NCBI RefSeq assembly: GCF_019968605.1
Contig: NZ_CP082966.1
Span: 1,165,001-1,229,000 of the forward strand
DNA: 64,000 nucleotides
Source of the DNA: Polaribacter litorisediminis
GTDB lineage: Bacteria > Bacteroidota > Bacteroidia > Flavobacteriales > Flavobacteriaceae
Direction of reading: 5' to 3'
Below, piece after piece: positions 27,874-40,559 of the stretch. The notes below the pieces were generated by a model, which saw nothing but the letters and a program-made list of their open reading frames with translations, searched no databases and was not told where the DNA came from. The translations under genes and the position numbers were made by a program. Each line of letters starts with the position of its first letter. The first letter of the stretch is position 1.

Positions 27874-28140
27874 ATGGCAAAAAAACGTGATAACGAGTTT
27901 AAGGTTATGCTAGTAGAACTATTAAAATCTGGAAGTAAACCAAAGGAACTAGGAGAGGAATATGGTTTAAACCCAGGTATGATTAGTCGCTGGAAACGAG
28001 AGTTTGCAGCAAGGTCTGGTGATTTTTCTAAAAAGAAAGTACTATCTGCAGAAGCGCAAGAATTAAAAGCCTTAAAAAAGGAATTTAGGGTATTGAACCC
28101 CTTTAGAAATGGAATTAAAATTAAAAGGAATTTTTAACAA
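27874..28140 (+). pseudogene. IS3-family transposase OrfA fragment
   Basis: The 87-aa frame begins MAKKRDNEFKVMLVELLKSG and has the HTH of IS3-type OrfA proteins (KELGEEYGLNPGMISRWKREF), then the start of the leucine-zipper part (EAQELKALKKEF). After ~28095 the usual continuation is lost: the zipper end reads better in another frame (EMELKLKGIFNKAA-like), and no OrfB (DDE integrase) follows. It is a remnant of an insertion sequence. No terminal inverted repeats could be identified. Confidence 0.8.
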
Positions 28141-28615: not shown

Positions 28616-30712
28616 TTGATTTTAAACAAACCCATTACATATATTCCTGGCATTAGTGGGCAAAGAGCGGGTCTTATATATTCTGAATTAGGTATAAAAA
28701 CATGCAACGATTTACTCAATTTTTTTCCGTTTCGGTATATCGATAAAACACAATTTTATCAAATTAAAGATTTACAACCCAGTGCTTCCGAAGTTCAGAT
28801 TGTTGGAAAAATAACACGAGTAAATGAGATCGCACAAAAAAGAGGAAGTAGGTTAGTAGCTACTTTTCAAGATGCTACCGGAACGATGGAGTTGGTTTGG
28901 TTTCGGGGTCAAAAATGGATTAAAGATTCCTTAAAAGTAAATGAACCTTATGTGGTGTATGGAAAATTAAATCATTACAACGGTAGTTTTAGCATTCCAC
29001 ACCCAGAAATGGAGTTGGTGAAGGAATATAAAAAAAAGTTGCAGTCTAAAATGCAACCGGTTTATCCATCCACAGAAAAATTAACAAACTCTGGTGTCTC
29101 CAATAAATTGATGCAGGGCTATGTTCTAAAGTTACTGCAAATCGTTTATGATACCATTCAAGAAAGTCTATCCCCAGAAATTATAGGCGATTTTAGTTTG
29201 ATGCCTAAAAAAGAAGCTTTATTAAATGTTCATTTTCCGAAAAGTCAAGAGAATTTGGCGAAAGCTCAATACCGTTTAAAATTTGAAGAATTATTCTTTA
29301 TTCAATTGCAGTTGGTAAGAAAAAAGCTCATCAACAAAACAAAAATAAAAGGGTTTATCTTTGAAAATGTAGGTGCTATTTTTAATGAATTTTATGCGGA
29401 TAAATTACCTTTTAATTTAACGAATGCTCAAAAAAGAGTGTTAAAAGAAATCAGAAAAGACGTGGCATCGGGAGCGCATATGAATCGTCTTTTGCAGGGC
29501 GATGTGGGTTCTGGAAAAACAATCGTTGCTCTATTATCGATGCTCTTAGCTATTGATAATGGTTTTCAAGCTACAATCATGGCACCCACAGAAATTTTAG
29601 CAAATCAACATTATATCGCCGTTTCAGAACTTTTACAAGGCATGAATATTAAGGTTGATATTTTAACGGGGTCAGTAAGAGCAAAGAAAAGAAGAGAAAT
29701 TCATGCTCATTTAGAAGACGGAACTTTACATATTTTAATTGGCACACATGCTTTATTAGAAGATAAAGTACAATTTAATAATTTAGGAATTGCAATTATT
29801 GATGAACAACACAGATTTGGAGTAGCGCAACGCTCCAAACTTTGGATGAAAAATAAGATGCCACCACATATTTTGGTCATGACGGCTACACCAATACCAA
29901 GAACATTAGCAATGTCCGTCTATGGCGATTTAGATATTTCTGTGATCGATGAATTGCCTCCTGGAAGAAAAGAAGTTAAAACAGTGCATCGCTTTGATAG
30001 CAATCGCTTGTCTGTTTTTAAATTTATGAGAGATGAAATCGCTAAAGGCAGACAAATTTATATTGTTTATCCATTAATTCAAGAATCTGAAGCTATGGAT
30101 TATAAGGATTTAATGGATGGTTATGAAAGTGTTTCTAGAGAGTTTCCAACGCCTAAATATCAAATAAGTATTGTGCACGGGCAGATGAAACCTGCCGATA
30201 AAGAGCATGAAATGCAACGTTTTGTAAAGCATGAAACTCAAATTATGGTGGCAACAACTGTTATTGAAGTGGGGGTTAATGTACCTAATGCAAGTGTTAT
30301 GATTATTGAAAGTTCAGAACGTTTTGGACTTTCTCAATTACATCAATTACGCGGAAGAGTTGGGCGAGGAGCAGACCAAAGTTATTGTATTTTATTATCG
30401 AGTTTTAAATTATCCGCAGAAGCAAAAACGCGTTTAAAAACCATGGTAGAAACTACAGACGGATTTAAAATAGCCGAAGTAGATTTAAAACTTCGGGGAC
30501 CCGGAAATTTAATGGGAACACAACAAAGTGGTGTTTTAAATTTAAAAATTGCCGATGTGGTTAAAGATTCTAAAATTTTAGTTGCTGCCAGAAATACGGC
30601 AATCTCAGTTTTACAAGAGGATGCTAATTTATCCAAACCAGAAAATATAAACATTAAAAACACGTTCATCCAAATCTCTAAAAGTTCAAAAATTTGGAGT
30701 AATATTAGTTGA
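28616..30712 (+). CDS. recG: ATP-dependent DNA helicase RecG
   Basis: 698 aa, full length for RecG, which remodels stalled forks and branched DNA in the cytoplasm. The wedge domain (FRYIDKTQFYQIKDLQ, VQIVGKITRVNE) precedes the helicase motor: Walker A LLQGDVGSGKTIVA, AIIDEQHRFGVAQR, VMTATPIPRTLAMS and the motif VI region LRGRVGRGADQSYC. The start is a TTG (28616), since no in-frame ATG precedes the conserved PITYIPGISGQRAG segment. The last ~300 bp are duplicated at 31643-31942. Confidence 0.95.
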   Translation: MILNKPITYIPGISGQRAGLIYSELGIKTCNDLLNFFPFRYIDKTQFYQIKDLQPSASEVQIVGKITRVNEIAQKRGSRLVATFQDATGTMELVWFRGQKWIKDSLKVNEPYVVYGKLNHYNGSFSIPHPEMELVKEYKKKLQSKMQPVYPSTEKLTNSGVSNKLMQGYVLKLLQIVYDTIQESLSPEIIGDFSLMPKKEALLNVHFPKSQENLAKAQYRLKFEELFFIQLQLVRKKLINKTKIKGFIFENVGAIFNEFYADKLPFNLTNAQKRVLKEIRKDVASGAHMNRLLQGDVGSGKTIVALLSMLLAIDNGFQATIMAPTEILANQHYIAVSELLQGMNIKVDILTGSVRAKKRREIHAHLEDGTLHILIGTHALLEDKVQFNNLGIAIIDEQHRFGVAQRSKLWMKNKMPPHILVMTATPIPRTLAMSVYGDLDISVIDELPPGRKEVKTVHRFDSNRLSVFKFMRDEIAKGRQIYIVYPLIQESEAMDYKDLMDGYESVSREFPTPKYQISIVHGQMKPADKEHEMQRFVKHETQIMVATTVIEVGVNVPNASVMIIESSERFGLSQLHQLRGRVGRGADQSYCILLSSFKLSAEAKTRLKTMVETTDGFKIAEVDLKLRGPGNLMGTQQSGVLNLKIADVVKDSKILVAARNTAISVLQEDANLSKPENINIKNTFIQISKSSKIWSNIS

Positions 30713-31153: not shown

Positions 31154-31537
31154 ATGACTTTTATTAAAAATCGTATTTATTGTAGACTTTTCAATCTAAC
31201 ATTTCTAATTGCTATATTTTTTTCAGTTACATCATGTGAATTAGAAGACTCCAATATCTCATCATCAGACCTAGAAGTTTATGTTTCTGGCACCTTATCT
31301 GGAAACCCAAGAAGTGGTCTTAGAGTTACAGTGTTTGGTTCAAGGAGTGATGCAAAGGATGAAGTTAATGCAGTTACTTTAACCCAAATTACTGATAATA
31401 ATGGATTGGTTTTTTTTAAAAACCTAGATTCTGGATTTAGTTATTGGGTTAGGGTAGATGCAATATTGATACGTAATATTATAAGTACAGATAATCTTGA
31501 TGAAGGATTTAACGAAATGAGTATTAAAATTCTATAA
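31154..31537 (+). CDS. Small lipoprotein of unknown function
   Basis: 127 aa. A long signal peptide ends in a lipobox (SVTSC, Cys28) followed by ELEDSN. The rest is a small beta-sandwich-like domain (LEVYVSGTLSGNPRSGLRVTVFGS, ITDNNGLVFFKNLDSGFSYWVRVDAI), similar in pattern to carboxypeptidase-regulatory or Ig-like folds. It is the only gene in the segment between the two recG 3' copies and may be cargo of whatever inserted there. Confidence 0.7.
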   Translation: MTFIKNRIYCRLFNLTFLIAIFFSVTSCELEDSNISSSDLEVYVSGTLSGNPRSGLRVTVFGSRSDAKDEVNAVTLTQITDNNGLVFFKNLDSGFSYWVRVDAILIRNIISTDNLDEGFNEMSIKIL

Positions 31538-31621: not shown

Positions 31622-31942
31622 TTGGTGATTACTTATAAAGTATCACTAGAAACTAAAACGCGTTTAAAAACCATGGTAGAAACTACAGACGGATTTAAAA
31701 TTGCAGAAGTAGATTTAAAATTAAGGGGACCTGGCAATTTAATGGGAACACAACAAAGTGGTGTTTTAAATTTAAAAATTGCCGATGTGGTTAAAGATTC
31801 TAAAATTTTAGTTGCTGCCAGAAATACGGCAATCTCAGTTTTACAAGAGGATGCTAATTTATCCAAACCAGAAAATATAAACATTAAAAACACGTTCATC
31901 CAAATCTCCAAAAGTTCAAAAATTTGGAGTACTATTAGTTGA
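31622..31942 (+). pseudogene. Truncated duplicate of the recG 3' end
   Basis: In-frame C-terminal ~100 residues of RecG (YKVSLETKTRLKTMVE onward, ending IWSTIS). Relative to 30413-30712 (offset 1230 bp) the first ~95 bp differ mostly at synonymous positions (ATA GCC / ATT GCA, CTT CGG / TTA AGG). The next 173 bp (30506-30678 and 31736-31908) are identical, and homology ends at the stop codon. It lacks all helicase motifs. Confidence 0.92.
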
Positions 31943-32076: not shown

Positions 32077-33069
32077 TTAATAGGTAAACAATATTGCGCC
32101 AATAGAGAAACCAGCAGAAGTTCCGATCAAAAAGCAAGTTTGACCTCTTTTTAGTTTTTTTTGTTGAATCGCATCATGAAGCGCCATCGGAATGGAAGCA
32201 GCAATACAATTGCCATTTTTATAAAGATTGTCTATAATTTGTGCTTTAGGAAATAACTTTGCTCTTTTCATCATTGCTAAACCCGCTCGAGAAGCTTGAT
32301 GCGGAATGACTAGATCTATATCTTCCATGGAGCTGTCTATATCGCTAAAAAAAGTGTTTACAAATGGTGAAATTTTATATTTGGCAAGCTTTAGCAGTTT
32401 TTTACCATCCATTTTAAAAGAATATAAGGCTTTGTCATGTGGTAAATCTTCATAAAAATGAACACTGCCACCACCTCTAATAATCGAATAATAAGCACCT
32501 TCCGAGAATGTTTTTTGCTGGCTTTTCAACACAGTAGAGTTGCCTGTTGGATCGTATGCTAGAACAGCGGCAGCAGCGCCATCACCAAATAAGGTAACCG
32601 TTTCCCAGTTTGTCGGGTCTAAGCCTTTTGAAGCAATCTCTGAAGAAACAATTAGGATTCGTTTATAAATTTTCCCGTCTAAAATTCTAGAGGCAATCTC
32701 CATCGCGGTTACAAAACTTAAACAAGTGCTATCAATGTCTATGGCAGGGAAATCAAAATCATCACCACGTGTTAGCGCATGTTTTATGATACTGGCTTGG
32801 TTGGGCAAAGGATAGTCATAAGTGCCTCCTGCAGAAATTAGCATGTCAATATTTTCTAAGGAAATACCTGCCGCTTTCATGGCATCTTCCGCTGCCCGAG
32901 CGCCCATATATCCGTTGGTTTCATCGGTTACATGATGCCGATTCTGTACCCCAGAATATTTTAGACTCCAGCCTAGCGGGATGCCGTTTTTAGTTTCTAT
33001 TTCTCCTGAAGAGACTACTTTTGGCAGATAAACACCGGTTCCTTCAATTTTAACTTTTAGTCCACTCAT
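32077..33069 (-). CDS. Beta-ketoacyl-ACP synthase III-like condensing enzyme
   Basis: 330 aa from the MSGLKVKIEGTGVYLPK start (33069). A longer frame to 33138 exists, but its extra 23 residues lack family similarity and lie inside the preceding gene. The thiolase-fold triad is complete: Cys116 (DIDSTCLSF), His257 (IPHQASRAG) and Asn287 (NGNCIAAS). It should condense an acyl-CoA or acyl-ACP with a second acyl unit. It overlaps the adenylate-forming gene by 20 bp and is the last gene of the seven-gene cluster. Its setting with an adenylating enzyme and a 3beta-HSD-like reductase recalls OleA rather than housekeeping FabH; this is inference. Confidence 0.9.
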   Translation of the reverse strand: MSGLKVKIEGTGVYLPKVVSSGEIETKNGIPLGWSLKYSGVQNRHHVTDETNGYMGARAAEDAMKAAGISLENIDMLISAGGTYDYPLPNQASIIKHALTRGDDFDFPAIDIDSTCLSFVTAMEIASRILDGKIYKRILIVSSEIASKGLDPTNWETVTLFGDGAAAAVLAYDPTGNSTVLKSQQKTFSEGAYYSIIRGGGSVHFYEDLPHDKALYSFKMDGKKLLKLAKYKISPFVNTFFSDIDSSMEDIDLVIPHQASRAGLAMMKRAKLFPKAQIIDNLYKNGNCIAASIPMALHDAIQQKKLKRGQTCFLIGTSAGFSIGAILFTY

Positions 33070-34333
33070 TTTGTATTCTTCTAAATTTATTGCCTTGTGA
33101 ATAATTTTTTTTGAAAGCACGCTGAATTTCAACCTCATAAATTCCTTGTGCTTTTAAAAACATTTGCAGTTTATTTTTTGCCAATTCGTAGTAGGCACTT
33201 TCTCCTATAAACAGTTCTAGTAAGGACTCGTTTTTTTGCACAACCGTGTAATTTGTAATAAGCGCATGAGCGCCAATTATTTCTCGTCTTATGAAATCTG
33301 GATATACTTTTATTTGTTTATTTTGGTAGGATGTAAAAGAGAGAACATCATCAGATCTGCCTTCAATTTTATGTATTACTTGAAATTTACTTCCACAAGC
33401 GCAAGCAGATTTTTCATGTAAAATATCATTGAGTTCATAGCGAATGATGGGTTGCGTGGTTCGGAACAGATCTGTAATAATGGGATGAAAACGTTTTTTT
33501 TCTGCATCAATATATTTTTTTTCAATGATAAGAAAGTCTTCATTAAAGTGCAGATGGCCATATTGGCAGGTGGTAGCAAGCATCCCCTCGGTGCATTGAT
33601 ACACCTGATGTATTTTTTGACGAAAAACACTTTGTAGGTATTCAGCATCTTCAGGTTCTAATACTTCGGCTACAGAAATAACTTTTAGGGGTGTAATCGA
33701 TAAGCTACCGTTTTCTATAAAAGAAGCAAGTTCCATGAGCACACTAGGTTGTGCAACCAAAATGGTAGGCTGCAAATTATGTAACTGAGGTATGTAAAGC
33801 TGTAATTGTTTTAAAATGTCAAAAAACTCAAAATGTATTCGTTTTGATTTTACGGAGCTGTATAAATTACTATTTGCTCTTAGAAAGAAAGCGATGTTCG
33901 TTTTTTTTGTTGAGATTCCAATGACCCGATCAAGAACACAAGCTACCCAATAGGCACGCTCTTTCTGACTGGCCATAAATATACTTCTATTACCGCTGGT
34001 GCCCGATGATAAACCCACTGTAATACCCTTTATGGTAGGTGAAAAATTACGTAAATGTTCTGCTTTAGAGGCTACATCCATGGCTTCTTTTAAAGAGATG
34101 CCTTGGGTGTTTATCTCATTAAAATTTGCCATAAATTTTGCTTTATTCATGATGGGGTAGTTTTCCAAAGGGATTTTTTTGAGAACTTTTTCTTTATAAA
34201 AAGGAGATTTTAATAGATTTTGTTGCATTTTTTTCCACCGTTTTTGTTGCAATTTATGCGGCTTATTTGCAAACAACCATTTGCTTATTCTTATCCGAAT
34301 TAGTGCAAATAAAATTTGAGTTTTAAAGGTCAT
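33050..34333 (-). CDS. Adenylate-forming enzyme, phenylacetate-CoA ligase / F390 synthetase-like
   Basis: 427 aa. The nucleotide-binding loop is GLSSGTSGNRSIFMASQKER. The later segments YQCTEGMLATTCQ and IIRYELNDILHEKSACACGS, then VIHKIEGRSDDVLSF, match the PaaK-like subfamily called F390 synthetase-related or putative adenylate-forming enzyme. It should activate a carboxylic acid as an acyl-adenylate. Its substrate is unknown. It overlaps the upstream hydrolase gene by 11 bp and the KAS III gene by 20 bp, so all three are likely translated together. Confidence 0.85.
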   Translation of the reverse strand: MTFKTQILFALIRIRISKWLFANKPHKLQQKRWKKMQQNLLKSPFYKEKVLKKIPLENYPIMNKAKFMANFNEINTQGISLKEAMDVASKAEHLRNFSPTIKGITVGLSSGTSGNRSIFMASQKERAYWVACVLDRVIGISTKKTNIAFFLRANSNLYSSVKSKRIHFEFFDILKQLQLYIPQLHNLQPTILVAQPSVLMELASFIENGSLSITPLKVISVAEVLEPEDAEYLQSVFRQKIHQVYQCTEGMLATTCQYGHLHFNEDFLIIEKKYIDAEKKRFHPIITDLFRTTQPIIRYELNDILHEKSACACGSKFQVIHKIEGRSDDVLSFTSYQNKQIKVYPDFIRREIIGAHALITNYTVVQKNESLLELFIGESAYYELAKNKLQMFLKAQGIYEVEIQRAFKKNYSQGNKFRRIQNEWTKS

Positions 34334-35168
34334 TCATGTTGATTTTTGATTGCACCAATGGGTTTGTAGTTTTCTCACAATGGGTGGGAACAATAATGGT
34401 TTCTGGGTGGTTAAGATGATAATCTGTAATCTTTTTTAAGCTTGATTTAAATTGCTTCCATGAATAAAAGAATAGCCGAACCATGGATGAGGGAAGTACC
34501 CCTTTTTTATAAGATTCTTGCAACCAACAACTATCCGCAATTAAAAAATAAGAGCGTTTAGCGGTAGCTACTAACAACCCAATTTGCCCAGCAGCATGAC
34601 CGGTTAAAGGAACTGTTATAAGATGTCCATCTCCAAATACATCGAAGCATTCTCCTAAGATTGGCAATTTAACCTTAGTCTTGTCATTAACCAATGAAAT
34701 CCTTTCCATAAAATTATCTGGGACTAATTCCTTAAGAATTCCTTTCGTAAAGCCAAGAATTTTAGGAATTTTATTGAATTGCTCTACTGCTTCTTGGGAG
34801 GCATGAAAGGTGGCATTCGGAAAATCTTTAAGACCTCCGATATGATCGGCATGAAAATGACTTATCACAATATGTTTGATACTTTCTGAAGCAATTCCAG
34901 CCGCTTTCAATTGCGCTTGTACTTCTTCATTCGCTGTAATGAAAACTTTTGTTATTTGTGCATAAATTTTATCAGGATAGTGTTTTGTTGCTTTGTAAAA
35001 CCGCTTAGAATATCCGGTGTCATACAAAATATAGCCTTCATTTGGGTGTTCAATCAAGCCCCACAATGCATTAAAAACAATGTCTTTTTTGCGCCCTCCA
35101 GAAATGGCATGATGCTCTTTAGACAAACAATATCCTGCGTAACCTAAATACATTTTACTATTGTTCAT
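34323..35168 (-). CDS. Metallo-beta-lactamase-fold hydrolase, lactonase-like
   Basis: 281 aa, no signal peptide. Zinc ligands are present: His104-x-His106-x-Asp108-His109 (ISHFHADHIGG), a later His (LTGHAAGQIG), the bridging Asp (LIADSCW) and the final His (VPTHCEK). Size and the N-terminal YDTGY phrase resemble N-acyl-homoserine lactonases and other lactone or thioester hydrolases. In this cluster it could open a lactone or release an acyl intermediate. It overlaps both neighbours by 11 bp. Confidence 0.87.
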   Translation of the reverse strand: MNNSKMYLGYAGYCLSKEHHAISGGRKKDIVFNALWGLIEHPNEGYILYDTGYSKRFYKATKHYPDKIYAQITKVFITANEEVQAQLKAAGIASESIKHIVISHFHADHIGGLKDFPNATFHASQEAVEQFNKIPKILGFTKGILKELVPDNFMERISLVNDKTKVKLPILGECFDVFGDGHLITVPLTGHAAGQIGLLVATAKRSYFLIADSCWLQESYKKGVLPSSMVRLFFYSWKQFKSSLKKITDYHLNHPETIIVPTHCEKTTNPLVQSKINMNDL

Positions 35169-36144
35169 CTTGCTGGGTCCATTTTACGAATTCATGAATG
35201 GCTTCTTTGGTTGTTACTTTTGGTTCATACCCCAATAAGTTTTTTGCTTTTGAAATATCTAAGGTCATAGAGATAGCTAAAGTTCCTACGCCATATTGTG
35301 TTAATGTGGGCTCGGAACTGTTTGTTATCCTTGATTTTAATTCTAGCAGTTTAGCAAGTGTTTTTACGATTTTAAAAGGTACTTTTTTAACGGGTGGCTT
35401 TTTGCCTAATTGTTGCAGTACATCACGGATGACTTTCCATAGCATTATTGGTTTTCCGTTTGTGATATGATAGATTTCATTCACAGCAGCACCTTTAGCT
35501 TTAACGGCTAATACAATTGCATTTGCGGCATTCTCTACTGAAGTAAGGTCTGCCATGTTCTTACCATTTCCAATGATTTTTAACTTTCCTTCGGTATTCG
35601 CTTTTATCAGCCTTGGCATGATTACCGTATCGCCTCGGCCAATAAGTGCTCGAGGTCTTAAAATTATAAAAGGTATACCAGAATCGATTAAAAGTAATTC
35701 GGCTTTTCGCTTGGTTTTTGCATATTCATTGACAAATTTTTTAGGCAGTGGATCTTCTTCTTTTACATTAAAAGCATCTTTATATTCGAAATACAGACTC
35801 GGTGTTGAAATAAAAATAAAGCGCTTAACTCCATGTTTTTTTGCATTTTCAATCAAATTTATTTGTGTCTTTACATTGGCACTTTCAAATTGCTTTTTAT
35901 CACCCCATGGTGATGATAGTGCAGCAGCATGAATAACGCAATCAATTTTCTCAAAGAGTTCATCAACGAAAGATTTGTTTTCTAAATCACCCAAAACATA
36001 CGTTACTTTTTCATGCCGAATAGTATGGGTTGGTTTTAAAGTTCTGCCCGATGCAGTGATGTGTTTTATGGTCGGATCTTGAACCAAAACCTCTAAGGTT
36101 CGCCAACCTAAAAAACCAGTGGCTCCTGTGAGTAATATATGCAT
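35158..36144 (-). CDS. NAD(P)-dependent epimerase / 3beta-hydroxysteroid dehydrogenase-like reductase
   Basis: 328 aa. The Rossmann start is LLTGATGFLGWRTLEVL and the catalytic YxxxK is YAKTKRKAE. The extended short-chain dehydrogenase layout continues with LRPRALIGRGD and YHITNGKPIMLWKVI. The 3beta-HSD-like subgroup includes OleD, which reduces 2-alkyl-3-keto acids. Such a role would fit after the KAS III step, but the substrate is not known. Its start is 4 bp from the Rieske gene's stop and its end overlaps the hydrolase gene by 11 bp. Confidence 0.88.
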   Translation of the reverse strand: MHILLTGATGFLGWRTLEVLVQDPTIKHITASGRTLKPTHTIRHEKVTYVLGDLENKSFVDELFEKIDCVIHAAALSSPWGDKKQFESANVKTQINLIENAKKHGVKRFIFISTPSLYFEYKDAFNVKEEDPLPKKFVNEYAKTKRKAELLLIDSGIPFIILRPRALIGRGDTVIMPRLIKANTEGKLKIIGNGKNMADLTSVENAANAIVLAVKAKGAAVNEIYHITNGKPIMLWKVIRDVLQQLGKKPPVKKVPFKIVKTLAKLLELKSRITNSSEPTLTQYGVGTLAISMTLDISKAKNLLGYEPKVTTKEAIHEFVKWTQQDEQ

Positions 36145-36148
36145 AGTT

Positions 36149-37129
36149 TTAGATATAAAGTTCTAAATCTTTTTCGATTACACTCCATGCTTCTCCGGCG
36201 AGCATTCTGTCTATGTATGGTCTCATAAGATCTAAATAGGTGTTTTTAATTTTGGGAGATTGAAAAAGAAGGTTATTGTTAAATTGATGTTTGATTGCTT
36301 TTTTATCTTGACGAAGCGCCAACAGAAATAAAGGACTTACTATCCAAACTTTAAGCCATGGCGGAACCCATCTTTTGCTTGCAGTAATTTGAGAAAAGAA
36401 ATAGTTTTCGTTGCCTTTTCCAGGCACAATGATAAAACGATTGGTCATTTCTAAACCTTTCTTTGAATAGAATTCAAGATCAATGATATTGCCATCAGAC
36501 AGTCTGCCATAACTATGGGTAATAAATCGGCCAAACATAGTTCCTATAATACCTGATTGGTGCGATTCTTCGGTATATTTTATTTCTACCCCGTGAGGTA
36601 TAGCCCGCACTTCCGCAGTTGTTTTATGGGGTTTAGCAGCACTTCTTATAAGTCCGTTGTGCAGAAATGAAGTGTGCATAGGATCTAAAAAATTTTCTAA
36701 AATATCGGCAGTTTTACCAATAATGATGGTCTGGTAAGAAAATATTTTTCTATCGGGTAATGGCTTAGATTTCAAATAAAAAGGGCTGTTATGAGCCAAA
36801 CAAACCCAAAGTAATCCATTGTGCTCATGAGTACTATAGGTTGTAAGAATGCAGGTTTTTTCTTTGTATTGTTTTTTTAGTCCTGGTATGTTTGTAACGT
36901 TCCCCGTGTAATCAAACTGCCAACCATGATAACCACACTGCAATTTTCCTCGAACGATTTTGCCTTTCGATAAAGGGTAATTTCTATGCGGACAGCAGTC
37001 TTTCTGTGCAATCCATCCTTGTTCTCCTTTATACACAACAATAGGTTGCTCAAAGAACATAAAACACTTAGGTTTTGCACTCAATTTTTTTAGAATTGCA
37101 ATCGGGTACCATTGGGGTTGTGTATTCAT
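36149..37129 (-). CDS. Rieske non-heme iron oxygenase (aromatic ring-hydroxylating type alpha subunit)
   Basis: 326 aa. Rieske [2Fe-2S] ligands are Cys46/His48 (DCCPHRN) and Cys65/His68 (QCGYHGW). The mononuclear iron site is ENFLDPMHTSFLH, with Asn146, Asp149, His152 and His157. Length and order resemble monooxygenases of the VanA / pheophorbide-oxygenase group. It would hydroxylate, demethylate or desaturate an intermediate. No dedicated reductase or ferredoxin is encoded nearby, so electrons must come from elsewhere. Confidence 0.9.
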   Translation of the reverse strand: MNTQPQWYPIAILKKLSAKPKCFMFFEQPIVVYKGEQGWIAQKDCCPHRNYPLSKGKIVRGKLQCGYHGWQFDYTGNVTNIPGLKKQYKEKTCILTTYSTHEHNGLLWVCLAHNSPFYLKSKPLPDRKIFSYQTIIIGKTADILENFLDPMHTSFLHNGLIRSAAKPHKTTAEVRAIPHGVEIKYTEESHQSGIIGTMFGRFITHSYGRLSDGNIIDLEFYSKKGLEMTNRFIIVPGKGNENYFFSQITASKRWVPPWLKVWIVSPLFLLALRQDKKAIKHQFNNNLLFQSPKIKNTYLDLMRPYIDRMLAGEAWSVIEKDLELYI

Positions 37130-37146
37130 AGAACTCTTTTGTATCC

Positions 37147-38259
37147 TTATAATTTATACTTTTTAATGAGGGGAACGCCAATTTTATTAGAAATAAATTG
37201 TAAAACTTTCCAAGGTAAACGTCTTTTTAAAGGTAAGTGCTTTAGATAAATAGCTGAATATTCGATCGAAGCTTGCCCACCTCTCATTCTTTTAAAACTG
37301 GGAGCACCCGAACTTAAATTCAGTAAAAGTCCTTGATCGAACTTATTCAAAAGAGCCAACTGTGCTGCATGAATATATAAACCCTCTTTTTGGGGAGCAC
37401 TAACATCATACCCAACAATGGGAGAGGTGATGGTTTTATCAAGTGTAAATTGCCCTGAAAATGCTTTCAATATTTTGTTTTTGTCGATGTAGCCATGAAA
37501 ATTAATAATTCCTGTTTGATGAACTTCTTTAAAATATTTTAATGTGAGTTGCGGATTTAATACAGAATATTTTTTTAAGTACAAGTCGCGATAGAGTTCA
37601 AGTGCTTGGGGAAGGTAAGCTTTCATTTCTTGATGATTGATAAAATGCAGCCCTTTTTTCTCAATTAGCTTGTTATCATGTTTATTATTGCGATGCTTAA
37701 GCCAAGCTTTTTTGGTAAGATCGAAAATATACACTTGTCTGCTACCCACGTTTTCATACTTATTTTTTTGAAATAATTGTAATAAGTGTCTGTGCTGATA
37801 GTCATTTAAGGATCTAAAAATAATAGCGTGTTGAGGGTATTGGGTTTTTATAAAAGATGTGATTTCGGCAATTTCTTTCCCGTTCCATTCTGGATATGGG
37901 TTGGTAGTCATGAGAAAATTATTCACATGCACATTTTTGTTGAGCATGCCTCTTTTTAACCAACCTGAGATTGCATTGACAAGAAGAATTAAAATAGCAC
38001 GTACTGTTTTATGATTGATGTTCCATTTAATTTCTTCTTTGGCATAGGCTGTATAAGCGGCGTAAGGTGCACAAACAAAAGAGTTCTCCCATTCTGTATG
38101 GTTTATGGTAACAGGGAAAAACACTTCTTTACCCACGCGAAGTACTCTATATTCTGTGCGTACGTTTTCAATGAGCAATTGCGAATTGTGTGCAATCATT
38201 TTACTGAAATCACGTACTATGCCCGTTAATTCTTCTTGTTTAGCCCATCTAATCTTCAT
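37147..38259 (-). CDS. GNAT/FemAB-like acyltransferase family protein
   Basis: 370 aa from MKIRWAKQEEL. The frame continues to an ATG at 38280, but the start at 38259 gives an 11-bp overlap with the ATP-grasp gene, the same overlap seen twice more in this cluster. It has a two-part fold with strands and helices as in FemAB/GNAT tandem domains (NFLMTTNPYPEWNGKEI, QVYIFDLTKKAWLKHR, GLYIHAAQLALLNKF, LNLSSGAPSFKRMRGG). No catalytic residue can be assigned. It may transfer an acyl or aminoacyl group to the product. Confidence 0.7.
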   Translation of the reverse strand: MKIRWAKQEELTGIVRDFSKMIAHNSQLLIENVRTEYRVLRVGKEVFFPVTINHTEWENSFVCAPYAAYTAYAKEEIKWNINHKTVRAILILLVNAISGWLKRGMLNKNVHVNNFLMTTNPYPEWNGKEIAEITSFIKTQYPQHAIIFRSLNDYQHRHLLQLFQKNKYENVGSRQVYIFDLTKKAWLKHRNNKHDNKLIEKKGLHFINHQEMKAYLPQALELYRDLYLKKYSVLNPQLTLKYFKEVHQTGIINFHGYIDKNKILKAFSGQFTLDKTITSPIVGYDVSAPQKEGLYIHAAQLALLNKFDQGLLLNLSSGAPSFKRMRGGQASIEYSAIYLKHLPLKRRLPWKVLQFISNKIGVPLIKKYKL

Positions 38260-39337
38260 GCCCGTTCCATTCAATATCATAAGTAGTTGCTTGTGTTAAA
38301 CTAATACCTTTTGATAATTTAATATAGATTAATTCTAGCACACTAATAAGTTGTAAAAAAGAAGGTACAGGGTCTTGCCAACTAAAAATAACTCCTTTGG
38401 CACTTTGAACTTTTTTGGAAAGAAATACGAATGGTTTTGTAAACAAAAGAACACTTGTTAACATGTAATCATTTTTGTCTGTGATTGTGTTTACAACATC
38501 ATTATAAAAGGAACCAGCTAAACTGTGACGCAATAAATGAGCTCCACTAGTACCTCTGGGGTTGCACTCTAGAAACCAAAAGGTGTTATCAGAAATAATG
38601 ACATCAAAACTTAGTTGACCGCTGTATAGGTAATACTCGCCAAATTTCTTAATTTTTTCTTTTAGTTGGCTGTTTTCAAAATGTTCAAAGTAAATAGCCG
38701 CTCCTTTTTTTACTCGGTATAAAGGTACATAGCAAGAATAGCCTTTTAATTTTCCAGAATCCCAAATAGTGTAAACGCAGACCTCTATTCCGGTTACTTT
38801 TTTTTGAGCAATCCAATTTTCAGGATCATTTATGGTATTAGAATGTATCAAAGTGTTTAAAATTGTACTACTTGCAAAACGCGAATATTTGGGTTTAAAA
38901 ACATAGGTATCACTTTGCGACCAATTTGAAAATTTCTCTAAGGAAATGGTTTCTGGTATGGTTAAAAAGTCTTTGAATTCTCTTGCAAAAGTTTCCTTAT
39001 TATGCAATAAATTCATAAGTTTTATATCAGATGTCCACACTTTACAATTCCAATTATTCTTATGTTTGGCAATGTAAAATACTTCTTCACAGCAAGGTAT
39101 TATATCCGTAATTGAGTATTTTATGATTAGTTTTGAAATGGTTTCCACAAATTCCATTGTGTTTTGTCTCGCCTTTGGGAGTCGCTCAAAGTGTGCAATA
39201 CTATTTGACCAACGACCAATTGGAAATCTTAGAGAATCTGCAAGGATTACTTTTAAACCTTGCGCATGAAAGCTGCGAGACAGTTCTAAAGCGATGGGAG
39301 CTCTAGCGCCTAAAATCAGAAAAATAGGTGCTTTCAA
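38249..39337 (-). CDS. ATP-grasp carboxylate-amine ligase-like protein
   Basis: 362 aa. The N-terminal part (FLILGARAPIALELSRSFHAQGLKVILAD) is a pre-ATP-grasp Rossmann-like domain. The ATP-grasp core includes DTYVFKPKYSRFASS and the metal-binding end WFLECNPRGTSGAHLLRHSL. Such enzymes join a carboxylate to an amine through an acyl-phosphate. It is the first gene of the cluster, preceded by ~500 bp without genes in which the promoter must lie. No clear TAnnTTTG box was found there. Confidence 0.85.
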   Translation of the reverse strand: MKAPIFLILGARAPIALELSRSFHAQGLKVILADSLRFPIGRWSNSIAHFERLPKARQNTMEFVETISKLIIKYSITDIIPCCEEVFYIAKHKNNWNCKVWTSDIKLMNLLHNKETFAREFKDFLTIPETISLEKFSNWSQSDTYVFKPKYSRFASSTILNTLIHSNTINDPENWIAQKKVTGIEVCVYTIWDSGKLKGYSCYVPLYRVKKGAAIYFEHFENSQLKEKIKKFGEYYLYSGQLSFDVIISDNTFWFLECNPRGTSGAHLLRHSLAGSFYNDVVNTITDKNDYMLTSVLLFTKPFVFLSKKVQSAKGVIFSWQDPVPSFLQLISVLELIYIKLSKGISLTQATTYDIEWNGHED

Positions 39338-39833: not shown

Positions 39834-40559
39834 TTAATTTCTAACAAAAACCATGCAATGCTGAATCGGTAAATTATCAATGTTTTTGTCGAGTTTAAAA
39901 CCAGCAGCCTTCATTTCTTTTATGGCTTGTTTTTCAGACATTTTATGAATTTCTTTAATAGGAATTAAAGGGTCTTCACTTCTATATTCAATTAAATATA
40001 TTTTTCCTGTTTTCTTTAGAGATTTTTTTATCGATAAAACCATTTCTTTCGGAAAATTAAATTCGTGATACACGTCAACCATTAAAACTTTATCAAATTT
40101 ATTTTCAGGAAGATTTACGCTTTTTTCATCACCCAAAACAAGTTCGATGTTTTTGTTCGTTTCATATTTTTTATTGATTAGCATTGCTTGTAACATTTCT
40201 GGTTGAATGTCTACCGCATAAATGGTTCCTTTGTTAGCAATAGGAGCCATCTTAAAAGTATGATACCCAGAACCTGCACCAATATCAGCAATGACATCTG
40301 TTGGTTTGATCTCCATATTTTTAATAAGTTTCGAGGTGTTTTCTTCTTTTTCTCTATTAGATCGCTCTAACCAATTGATTCCTTGATACCCCATTACATA
40401 GGCAATTTCTCGTCCTAAATACCATTTGCCAATACCGTTTTGATCTCCTTTTTTAAACGTATATGTTTTTTGATTAAGGGCAGTGCTATTTTGAGATTTA
40501 CAAGAAGTAGTCGTAAAAATTAAAAGTAGAACGATTTTAAAAATATAGGATTTTATCAT
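39834..40559 (-). CDS. Class I SAM-dependent methyltransferase with lipoprotein signal
   Basis: 241 aa. The SAM site is VIADIGAGSGYHTFKMA, with the acidic strand IYAVDIQPEMLQ and the later segment DKVLMVDVYHEF. It ends FVRN. Oddly, the N-terminus is a classic lipoprotein signal (MIKSYIFKIVLLLIF then TTTSC, Cys20, KSQN), which would place the enzyme outside the inner membrane, where SAM is not expected. The substrate is unknown. It lies upstream of the seven-gene cluster on the same strand but is separated by ~500 bp, so common transcription is doubtful. Confidence 0.88.
   Translation of the reverse strand: MIKSYIFKIVLLLIFTTTSCKSQNSTALNQKTYTFKKGDQNGIGKWYLGREIAYVMGYQGINWLERSNREKEENTSKLIKNMEIKPTDVIADIGAGSGYHTFKMAPIANKGTIYAVDIQPEMLQAMLINKKYETNKNIELVLGDEKSVNLPENKFDKVLMVDVYHEFNFPKEMVLSIKKSLKKTGKIYLIEYRSEDPLIPIKEIHKMSEKQAIKEMKAAGFKLDKNIDNLPIQHCMVFVRN

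What the first reader, a model, noticed from the sequence alone, without database searches (positions are those of the whole stretch)
32077..39337. Seven-gene cluster of unknown pathway: KAS III, adenylating enzyme, MBL-fold hydrolase, 3beta-HSD-like reductase, Rieske oxygenase, GNAT-like protein, ATP-grasp
Seen: seven minus-strand genes with gaps of at most 17 bp or overlaps (11, 11, 11 and 20 bp), complete KAS III Cys-His-Asn, Zn, Rieske and ATP-grasp motifs. Established: OleA (thiolase-fold condensation), OleC (adenylating beta-lactone synthetase) and OleD (3beta-HSD-like reductase) form one pathway, ended by OleB, an alpha/beta hydrolase. Inference: this cluster has an OleA-, OleC- and OleD-like trio with an MBL-fold hydrolase in the OleB place, plus oxidation (Rieske), acyl or aminoacyl transfer (GNAT) and amide ligation (ATP-grasp). 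It may make an unknown acyl-derived amide or lactone product. The adenylating enzyme is of the PaaK/F390-like branch, not the classical OleC branch, so the pathway is not simply Ole.
Basis: partly seen in the sequence, partly recalled or inferred. Interest (0 to 1): 0.85.

Follow-up and report, generated by a model that had tools for sequence, protein, structure and literature searches.

The report
Modular KAS III biosynthetic gene cassette
Seven adjacent genes look like one assembly line for an unknown fatty-acid-derived compound: four core genes recur together in distant bacteria, and different finishing genes are plugged in, here a pair that may attach an amino acid.

The parts
38249..39337 (-). 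T: ATP-grasp ligase (PRK06849-like), first gene of the operon
37147..38259 (-). G: double-GNAT-fold protein, candidate aminoacyl-tRNA-dependent aminoacyl transferase; Phe329-Lys330 (numbered from the longer ORF start at 38280)
36149..37129 (-). R: Rieske non-haem iron oxygenase
   Evidence: PF00355 68 bits; ligands conserved in 11 of 11 rows
35158..36144 (-). S: OleD-like NAD(P)-dependent reductase (3beta-HSD/SDR fold); core
   Evidence: NF042422 OleD best curated family, 175 bits; YxxxK 71 of 71
34323..35168 (-). M: metallo-beta-lactamase-fold hydrolase, AHL-lactonase-like; core
   Evidence: PF00753 50 bits; AttM 85 bits, cut-off 390; metal ligands 73 of 73
33050..34333 (-). A: adenylate-forming enzyme of TIGR02304 (F390 synthetase-related); core
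   Evidence: TIGR02304 454 bits, cut-off 252
32077..33069 (-). K: KAS III-type condensing enzyme, MxnB/CorB-like, no OleA glutamate; core; last gene
   Evidence: PDB 4v2p MxnB E 2e-62 and CorB 6e-60; triad 74 of 74, Ile/Leu/Val at the Glu position 74 of 74; tree

Best explanation
A horizontally moving biosynthetic system in two parts. Core S-M-A-K: K joins acyl units to a beta-keto product (inferred; without the Glu base it more likely uses malonyl or beta-ketoacyl thioesters than two unactivated acyl chains). S reduces the ketone to a hydroxyl (inferred from OleD similarity). M hydrolyses a thioester or lactone (inferred). A adenylates the carboxyl group (inferred from intact motifs). The core product is then capped by one of several interchangeable finishing modules. 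In the window this is T-G-R: G transfers an amino acid from aminoacyl-tRNA (inferred from fold and motif), T makes an amide with ATP, and R oxidises the product. In relatives a sulfotransferase or a DUF3419/BtaA-like protein takes that place. The likely product is an amphiphilic lipid or lipid-like metabolite with an amino-acid polar group. Shown: one co-inherited system, its core, and alternation of modules. Not shown: any reaction.
For: Core: A 80, K 76, M 74, S 74 of 80 loci; S-M-A contiguous in 67, S-M-A-K in 40, K-T-S-M-A in 20, K-T-S-M-A-G in 8. Co-occurrence in one sample of the phylum: A over cut-off in 6 of 395, G in 6 of 395 at E 1e-10, T at 394 bits or more in 6 of 395, next hit 88 bits, all the same six genomes, four genera. 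If independent, A-G identity has probability 2e-13 by genome, 3e-8 by genus. T-G-R lies apart from the core in L149, L151, L152 and L155, T-G in L153; L150 holds G-R with T at another contig end. Alternation: T and/or G in 34, sulfotransferase type in 17, DUF3419 type in 8 of 80 loci, no two together. T and G absent from 22 of 22 whole genomes whose core sits beside a sulfotransferase (13), DUF3419 (6) or fatty acid hydroxylase (3) gene. At least 4 changes among the three modules on the K tree, where 2 is the least possible. G fold: Sbb17, FemX, MprF. Lys330 is invariant and Phe329 in at least 90% of 46 rows, like Phe328-Lys329 of DhpH-C and Lys305 of FemXWv (PMC12945691, passages).
Confidence: 0.5

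Rival explanations
1. Beta-lactone pathway of the Ole/lipstatin kind: K fuses two acyl chains, S reduces the 2-alkyl-3-keto acid, A closes a beta-lactone as OleC does, and T/G add an amino acid ester or amide as the NRPS does for leucine in lipstatin (LstE recalled); M would be a lactonase or editing enzyme.
For: S is closest to OleD; same KAS III + 3beta-HSD-like + adenylating set; oleACD clusters without oleB make beta-lactones (PMC7064751, passages).
Against: The OleA Glu117-Pro position holds Ile, Leu or Val, no Glu in 74 of 74 rows; A belongs to TIGR02304 and not clearly to the OleC branch.
Confidence: 0.2
2. Alpha-pyrone or related ring: K joins two beta-ketoacyl thioesters like MxnB, giving a pyrone that S and R modify and M opens.
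For: MxnB and CorB are the closest solved relatives and join the cassette K proteins at 100/100; MxnB condenses two beta-ketoacyl chains (PMC5724707, abstract and passages).
Against: No polyketide synthase or carrier protein in the window operon; a finished pyrone leaves no clear role for A; MxnB/CorB sit on a long separate branch.
Confidence: 0.12
3. Catabolic operon for a steroid- or lactone-like compound: Rieske oxygenase, 3beta-HSD-like dehydrogenase, hydrolase and ligase break a substrate down.
For: R and S have weak matches to sterol demethylation proteins SdmA (55 bits) and SdmB (51 bits).
Against: Both cut-offs are 600 bits; R is absent from most core loci (10 of 80 have it); a condensing KAS III and an ATP-grasp ligase point to biosynthesis. 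Not all neighbour clusters were annotated, so a conserved transporter is not excluded.
Confidence: 0.06
4. Decarboxylative olefin formation in the sulfotransferase variants: the beta-hydroxyl is sulfated and a hydrolase releases the acid, which loses CO2 and sulfate as in the curacin CurM mechanism (recalled); the window variant would then be a side branch.
For: An alpha/beta hydrolase lies next to the sulfotransferase in L058, L059, L062 and L067 and near it in L050; genes resembling CysD, CysN (L065) and CysC (L073) by eye.
Against: Does not explain T-G or DUF3419 variants; 12 of 17 sulfotransferase-type loci show no alpha/beta hydrolase of this kind on the core strand.
Confidence: 0.05

Closest known systems
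OleABCD olefin and oleACD beta-lactone pathways, including lipstatin (lst)
   Same: KAS III-type condensing enzyme, OleD-like reductase and adenylating enzyme in one operon; in lipstatin an amino acid is attached (recalled)
   Different: K lacks the OleA Glu117; A is TIGR02304 (PaaK/F390-like); an MBL hydrolase is core; T and a Fem-fold protein instead of an NRPS (recalled for lipstatin); modules are exchangeable
MxnB and CorB, chain-joining ketosynthases of myxopyronin and corallopyronin
   Same: closest solved relatives of K; same triad; non-acidic residue at the OleA Glu position
   Different: they serve PKS systems with carrier proteins; none in the window operon; deep separate branch
FemABX / MprF / streptothricin-type Sbb17 and DhpH-C aminoacyl-tRNA-dependent transferases
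   Same: double-GNAT fold of G; conserved Phe-Lys at the catalytic Lys motif
   Different: no detectable sequence relation; substrate and tRNA use untested
NCBI families PRK07204 (KAS III) and PRK06849 (ATP-grasp)
   Same: K and T of Brevibacillus (L084) score over both cut-offs, so the families are catalogued
   Different: window K and T score under the cut-offs; the models are described only as beta-ketoacyl-ACP synthase III and hypothetical protein
BtaA-type DUF3419 proteins
   Same: the protein beside the core in 8 loci is of this family (Pfam run on L052; also G497 and G501; others by BLAST)
   Different: whether it transfers a 3-amino-3-carboxypropyl group here is not tested; not in the window or its genome

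Membership tests
Ole pathway | OleA catalytic Glu117 followed by Pro | tested here: not met
   Ile 42, Leu 31, Val 1 of 74 cassette K rows at the MxnB V94 / PpyS E105 column; no OleA sequence was in the alignment, the column is set through MxnB
Ole pathway | OleD reductase | tested here: inconclusive
   best curated family but 175 bits (window) and 251 bits (L084) against cut-off 580
Ole pathway | OleC-branch adenylating enzyme | tested here: inconclusive
   A is over the TIGR02304 cut-off (454 against 252) and under the PF00501 cut-off (20 against 30), which speaks against OleC; whether the library holds an OleC model was not checked
Ole pathway | OleB alpha/beta hydrolase beside it | tested here: not met
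   none among the window genes; an MBL-fold protein instead
MxnB/CorB ketosynthases | Cys-His-Asn triad and no Glu base | tested here: met
   74 of 74
MxnB/CorB ketosynthases | joins two beta-ketoacyl chains into a pyrone | not testable with these tools
   needs an in vitro assay
TIGR02304 | score over the curated cut-off | tested here: met
   454.3 against 251.9 bits
PRK07204 and PRK06849 | score over the curated cut-offs | tested here: not met
   window K 325 against 402, T 274 against 406; Brevibacillus K 519 and T 442 pass
FemABX aminoacyl transferases | PF02388 sequence match | tested here: not met
   no Pfam family at E 0.01; no profile match to an alignment of two FemAB sequences
FemABX aminoacyl transferases | double-GNAT fold | tested here: met
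FemABX aminoacyl transferases | catalytic Lys after Phe | tested here: inconclusive
   Phe329-Lys330, Lys invariant in 46 rows; matched by motif and not by superposition
FemABX aminoacyl transferases | uses aminoacyl-tRNA | not testable with these tools
   needs an assay
Rieske oxygenases | CxH, CxxH and mononuclear iron ligands | tested here: met
   11 of 11 rows

The most novel reading that the evidence does not exclude
A previously undescribed class of bacterial amphiphiles made by a cross-phylum cassette: a KAS III / OleD-like / MBL / PaaK-like core builds one scaffold, and interchangeable modules attach different polar groups to it: amino acids by a new tRNA-dependent transferase family with an ATP-grasp ligase, sulfate, or an aminocarboxypropyl group.
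Probability: 0.35. Interest if true: 0.82.

Novelty: new variant of a known kind. Interest (0 to 1): 0.62.

Why it matters
Most of the protein families are catalogued, G is not. Seven searches of the open-access library for the family names or for combinations of the enzymes listed two papers in all, neither on such a cluster by title and abstract; subscription papers are mostly not held. If the reading holds, a widespread and horizontally spread lipid-like product family is unknown, its core and finishing steps are now separable and testable, and G would be a new family of aminoacyl-tRNA-dependent enzymes outside FemABX and MprF sequence space. The natural variants (T-G-R, sulfotransferase, DUF3419) give a built-in comparison for finding the product by mass spectrometry.

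Tried and rejected
Housekeeping FabH: rejected. The five other KAS III proteins of this genome are 21-27% identical to K and lie outside the branch that holds the cassette K proteins with MxnB and CorB; the tree tool warns of long branches among them.

G as a FemAB member by sequence: no support; only fold and motif remain. Foldseek and VIA rows also show other GNATs, so a CoA-dependent acyltransferase is not excluded.

Generic ATP-grasp: 18 other genomes of the 395 have T matches at E of 1e-10 or better, the best of them 88 bits, far below the six at 394 or more.

Distant A paralogues (270, 252 and 236 bits) in the three g60 genomes sit in another gene context without S, M or K in about 20 kb and were not counted as cassettes.

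Exclusiveness at genome level for DUF3419 is not absolute. A sulfotransferase query found none in 11 genomes with T or G and none in 9 DUF3419- or hydroxylase-type genomes, but it also missed one of three positive controls, G489, so it is weak.

Empty-site test: in about 10 kb downstream of recG in 8 same-genus genomes no cassette gene was found; the exact ends of the insertion are not settled. Promoter- and terminator-like sites are no more frequent than in shuffles (28 against 32.1; 3 against 5.8).

Literature: no held paper contains TIGR02304, 'F390 synthetase-related protein' or PRK06849; combination searches listed one paper each (listing only, not on this topic) and none. The lipstatin operon paper was not held, so lst details beyond PMC7064751 are recalled, as are the BtaA and CurM mechanisms and the names of motifs such as A10 and the P-loop.
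Full report
Observation. The seven minus-strand genes are there, in the order T-G-R-S-M-A-K of transcription, with overlaps of 11, 11, 11 and 20 bp and gaps of 17 and 4 bp. The next gene upstream, a methyltransferase-like ORF at 39834-40559, is about 500 bp away and is not seen beside the related loci. The host is a Bacteroidota genome of 4.34 Mb; one partial G homologue at 93% identity over 67% of G is labelled Polaribacter sp., so a Polaribacter-like flavobacterium is likely (inference).

Families. K: NF005541 (PRK07204) 325 bits, under its cut-off; closest solved proteins MxnB (E 2e-62) and CorB. A: TIGR02304, 454 bits, over its cut-off. M: MBL fold, AttM-like lactonase model 85 bits. S: best curated family OleD, 175 bits. 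R: Rieske. T: NF005315 (PRK06849) 274 bits, ATP-grasp_3. G: no family.

Recurrence. A profile of A found 338 encoding loci in the species-level genome collection; the best 80 were kept: 43 Bacteroidota, 32 Bacillota, 2 Balneolota, one each Pseudomonadota and Cyanobacteriota and one unassigned. By tblastn K is present in 76, M in 74, S in 74, T in 34, G in 18 and R in 10 of the 80. Eight loci lack one or more of K, M and S: L064, L067, L068, L089 and L106 are cut by a contig end on one side; L086 is a short contig cut inside A with no S or M in the 2.5 kb before it; L101 and L118 look like real absences. S-M-A is contiguous on one strand in 67, S-M-A-K in 40, K-T-S-M-A in 20, K-T-S-M-A-G in 8, and the window's own order T-G-R-S-M-A-K in 3: Aestuariivivens, Aquimarina and Flavivirga. 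A Balneolota locus (L047) lies inside the flavobacterial clade of the K tree and has T-G-S-M-A-K, which points to horizontal transfer. In the window's genus 3 of 97 genomes have A, the window's own included; the two others have a different version at 52% identity, with S-M-A-K and no T or G in the one locus that is not cut (L130). The cluster has 35.5% G+C against 31.6% in the rest of the window.

Catalytic residues. K keeps Cys-His-Asn in 74 of 74 rows; the column of MxnB Val94 and PpyS Glu105 holds Ile, Leu or Val in 74 of 74 (no OleA or PpyS sequence was in the alignment). PMC4578411 (parts 1 and 2 of 3 read) reports that PpyS loses its product when Glu105 is changed, and that MxnB/CorB have Val94 there. 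PMC7064751 (passages) says Glu117 followed by Pro marks all but two of its OleA proteins and is essential in OleA. Window K has Leu-Pro at this place. The cassette K proteins with MxnB and CorB form one side of a branch at 100/100 in a tree with five other KAS III of this genome and Aquifex FabH; the cassette proteins alone have 90/79. Motifs of A, M, S, T and R are conserved.

Phylogenetic profile. In one sample of the phylum, 133 of 395 genomes have some TIGR02304 match at E 0.001 and 6 of 395 have one over the cut-off. G is found in 6 of 395 at E 1e-10. T is found at 394 bits or more in 6 of 395, with matches of 88 bits or less in 18 others. The three sets are the same six genomes, from four genera (three of the six are one genus). 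In the window and in G046, T and G adjoin the core. In G034 and G013 they sit in a T-G-R operon on another contig (L149, L151); in G190 T-G-R is on the same contig, about 29 kb from A (L152); in G131 G-R is on one contig and T at the end of another. The window thus shows both parts fused.

Alternation. Near the other cores, on the core strand and within six ORFs of A, lie a sulfotransferase-type gene (17 of 80), sometimes with a fatty acid desaturase, an alpha/beta hydrolase or genes that resemble sulfate-activation genes by eye; a DUF3419-type gene (8 of 80), with a Rieske gene in 7; or a fatty acid hydroxylase-type gene (8 of 80, some beside a sulfotransferase). Pfam was run on one representative of each (PF13469, PF11899, PF04116); the rest are linked to them by BLAST. 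No locus has two of T/G, sulfotransferase and DUF3419; 17 of 80 have none of the four modules. Whole-genome searches of 31 genomes behind such loci (32 asked for, one not held) found neither T (E 1e-20) nor G (E 1e-10) in 22 of 22 genomes of the sulfotransferase (13), DUF3419 (6) and hydroxylase (3) types. Two Runella genomes and Xanthocytophaga, whose core loci have no module, carry T-G-R or T-G elsewhere, and Paenibacillus taichungensis carries G elsewhere. Three of the 31 (G512, G513, G514) have neither T nor G, and two (G518, G519) have T only. The K tree needs at least four changes among the three modules, two being the least possible. DUF3419 proteins also occur away from the core in some genomes, so that family has other jobs too.

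Interpretation. What is shown is one co-inherited system with a conserved core and alternating finishing modules. What is inferred is the chemistry: K forms a beta-keto product, S reduces it, M hydrolyses, A adenylates, and the modules add a polar group. A hydroxyl made by S would be a natural acceptor for sulfation, aminoacylation or aminocarboxypropyl transfer, which is why a shared hydroxylated scaffold is my preferred reading. It works like the Ole/lipstatin logic but fails the OleA test and uses another adenylating branch, so I do not file it there.

Noticed in passing
window 30403-30712 and 31633-31942: The last 310 bp of recG are duplicated (94.8% identity) just beyond the 3' end of the cluster, flanking a small lipoprotein-like ORF (31154-31537); suggests integration at the recG 3' end.
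   Followed up: partly
G395, G403, G414, G422, G430: RecG in 5 of 16 same-genus genomes matches in two pieces split near residue 414 within one open frame of 847-869 aa, as an in-frame insert such as an intein would give; the window's RecG lacks it.
   Followed up: no
window 27874-28137: Short transposase-OrfA-like ORF (by eye) before recG, apparently a remnant.
   Followed up: no
L042, L043, L044: More distant TIGR02304-like paralogues (236-270 bits) in three genomes of one genus, in another gene context without S, M or K.
   Followed up: no
L115:3563-11263: Candidatus Sericytochromatia locus with an acyl-AMP-ligase-like ORF (by eye), a small carrier protein (PF00550), an S homologue and a 705-aa ORF holding A; a possible carrier-protein-linked variant.
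   Followed up: partly
L099:6820-9744: In Paenibacillus sp. OVF10, T is split over two ORFs and M is short, from a real frameshift or sequencing error.
   Followed up: no
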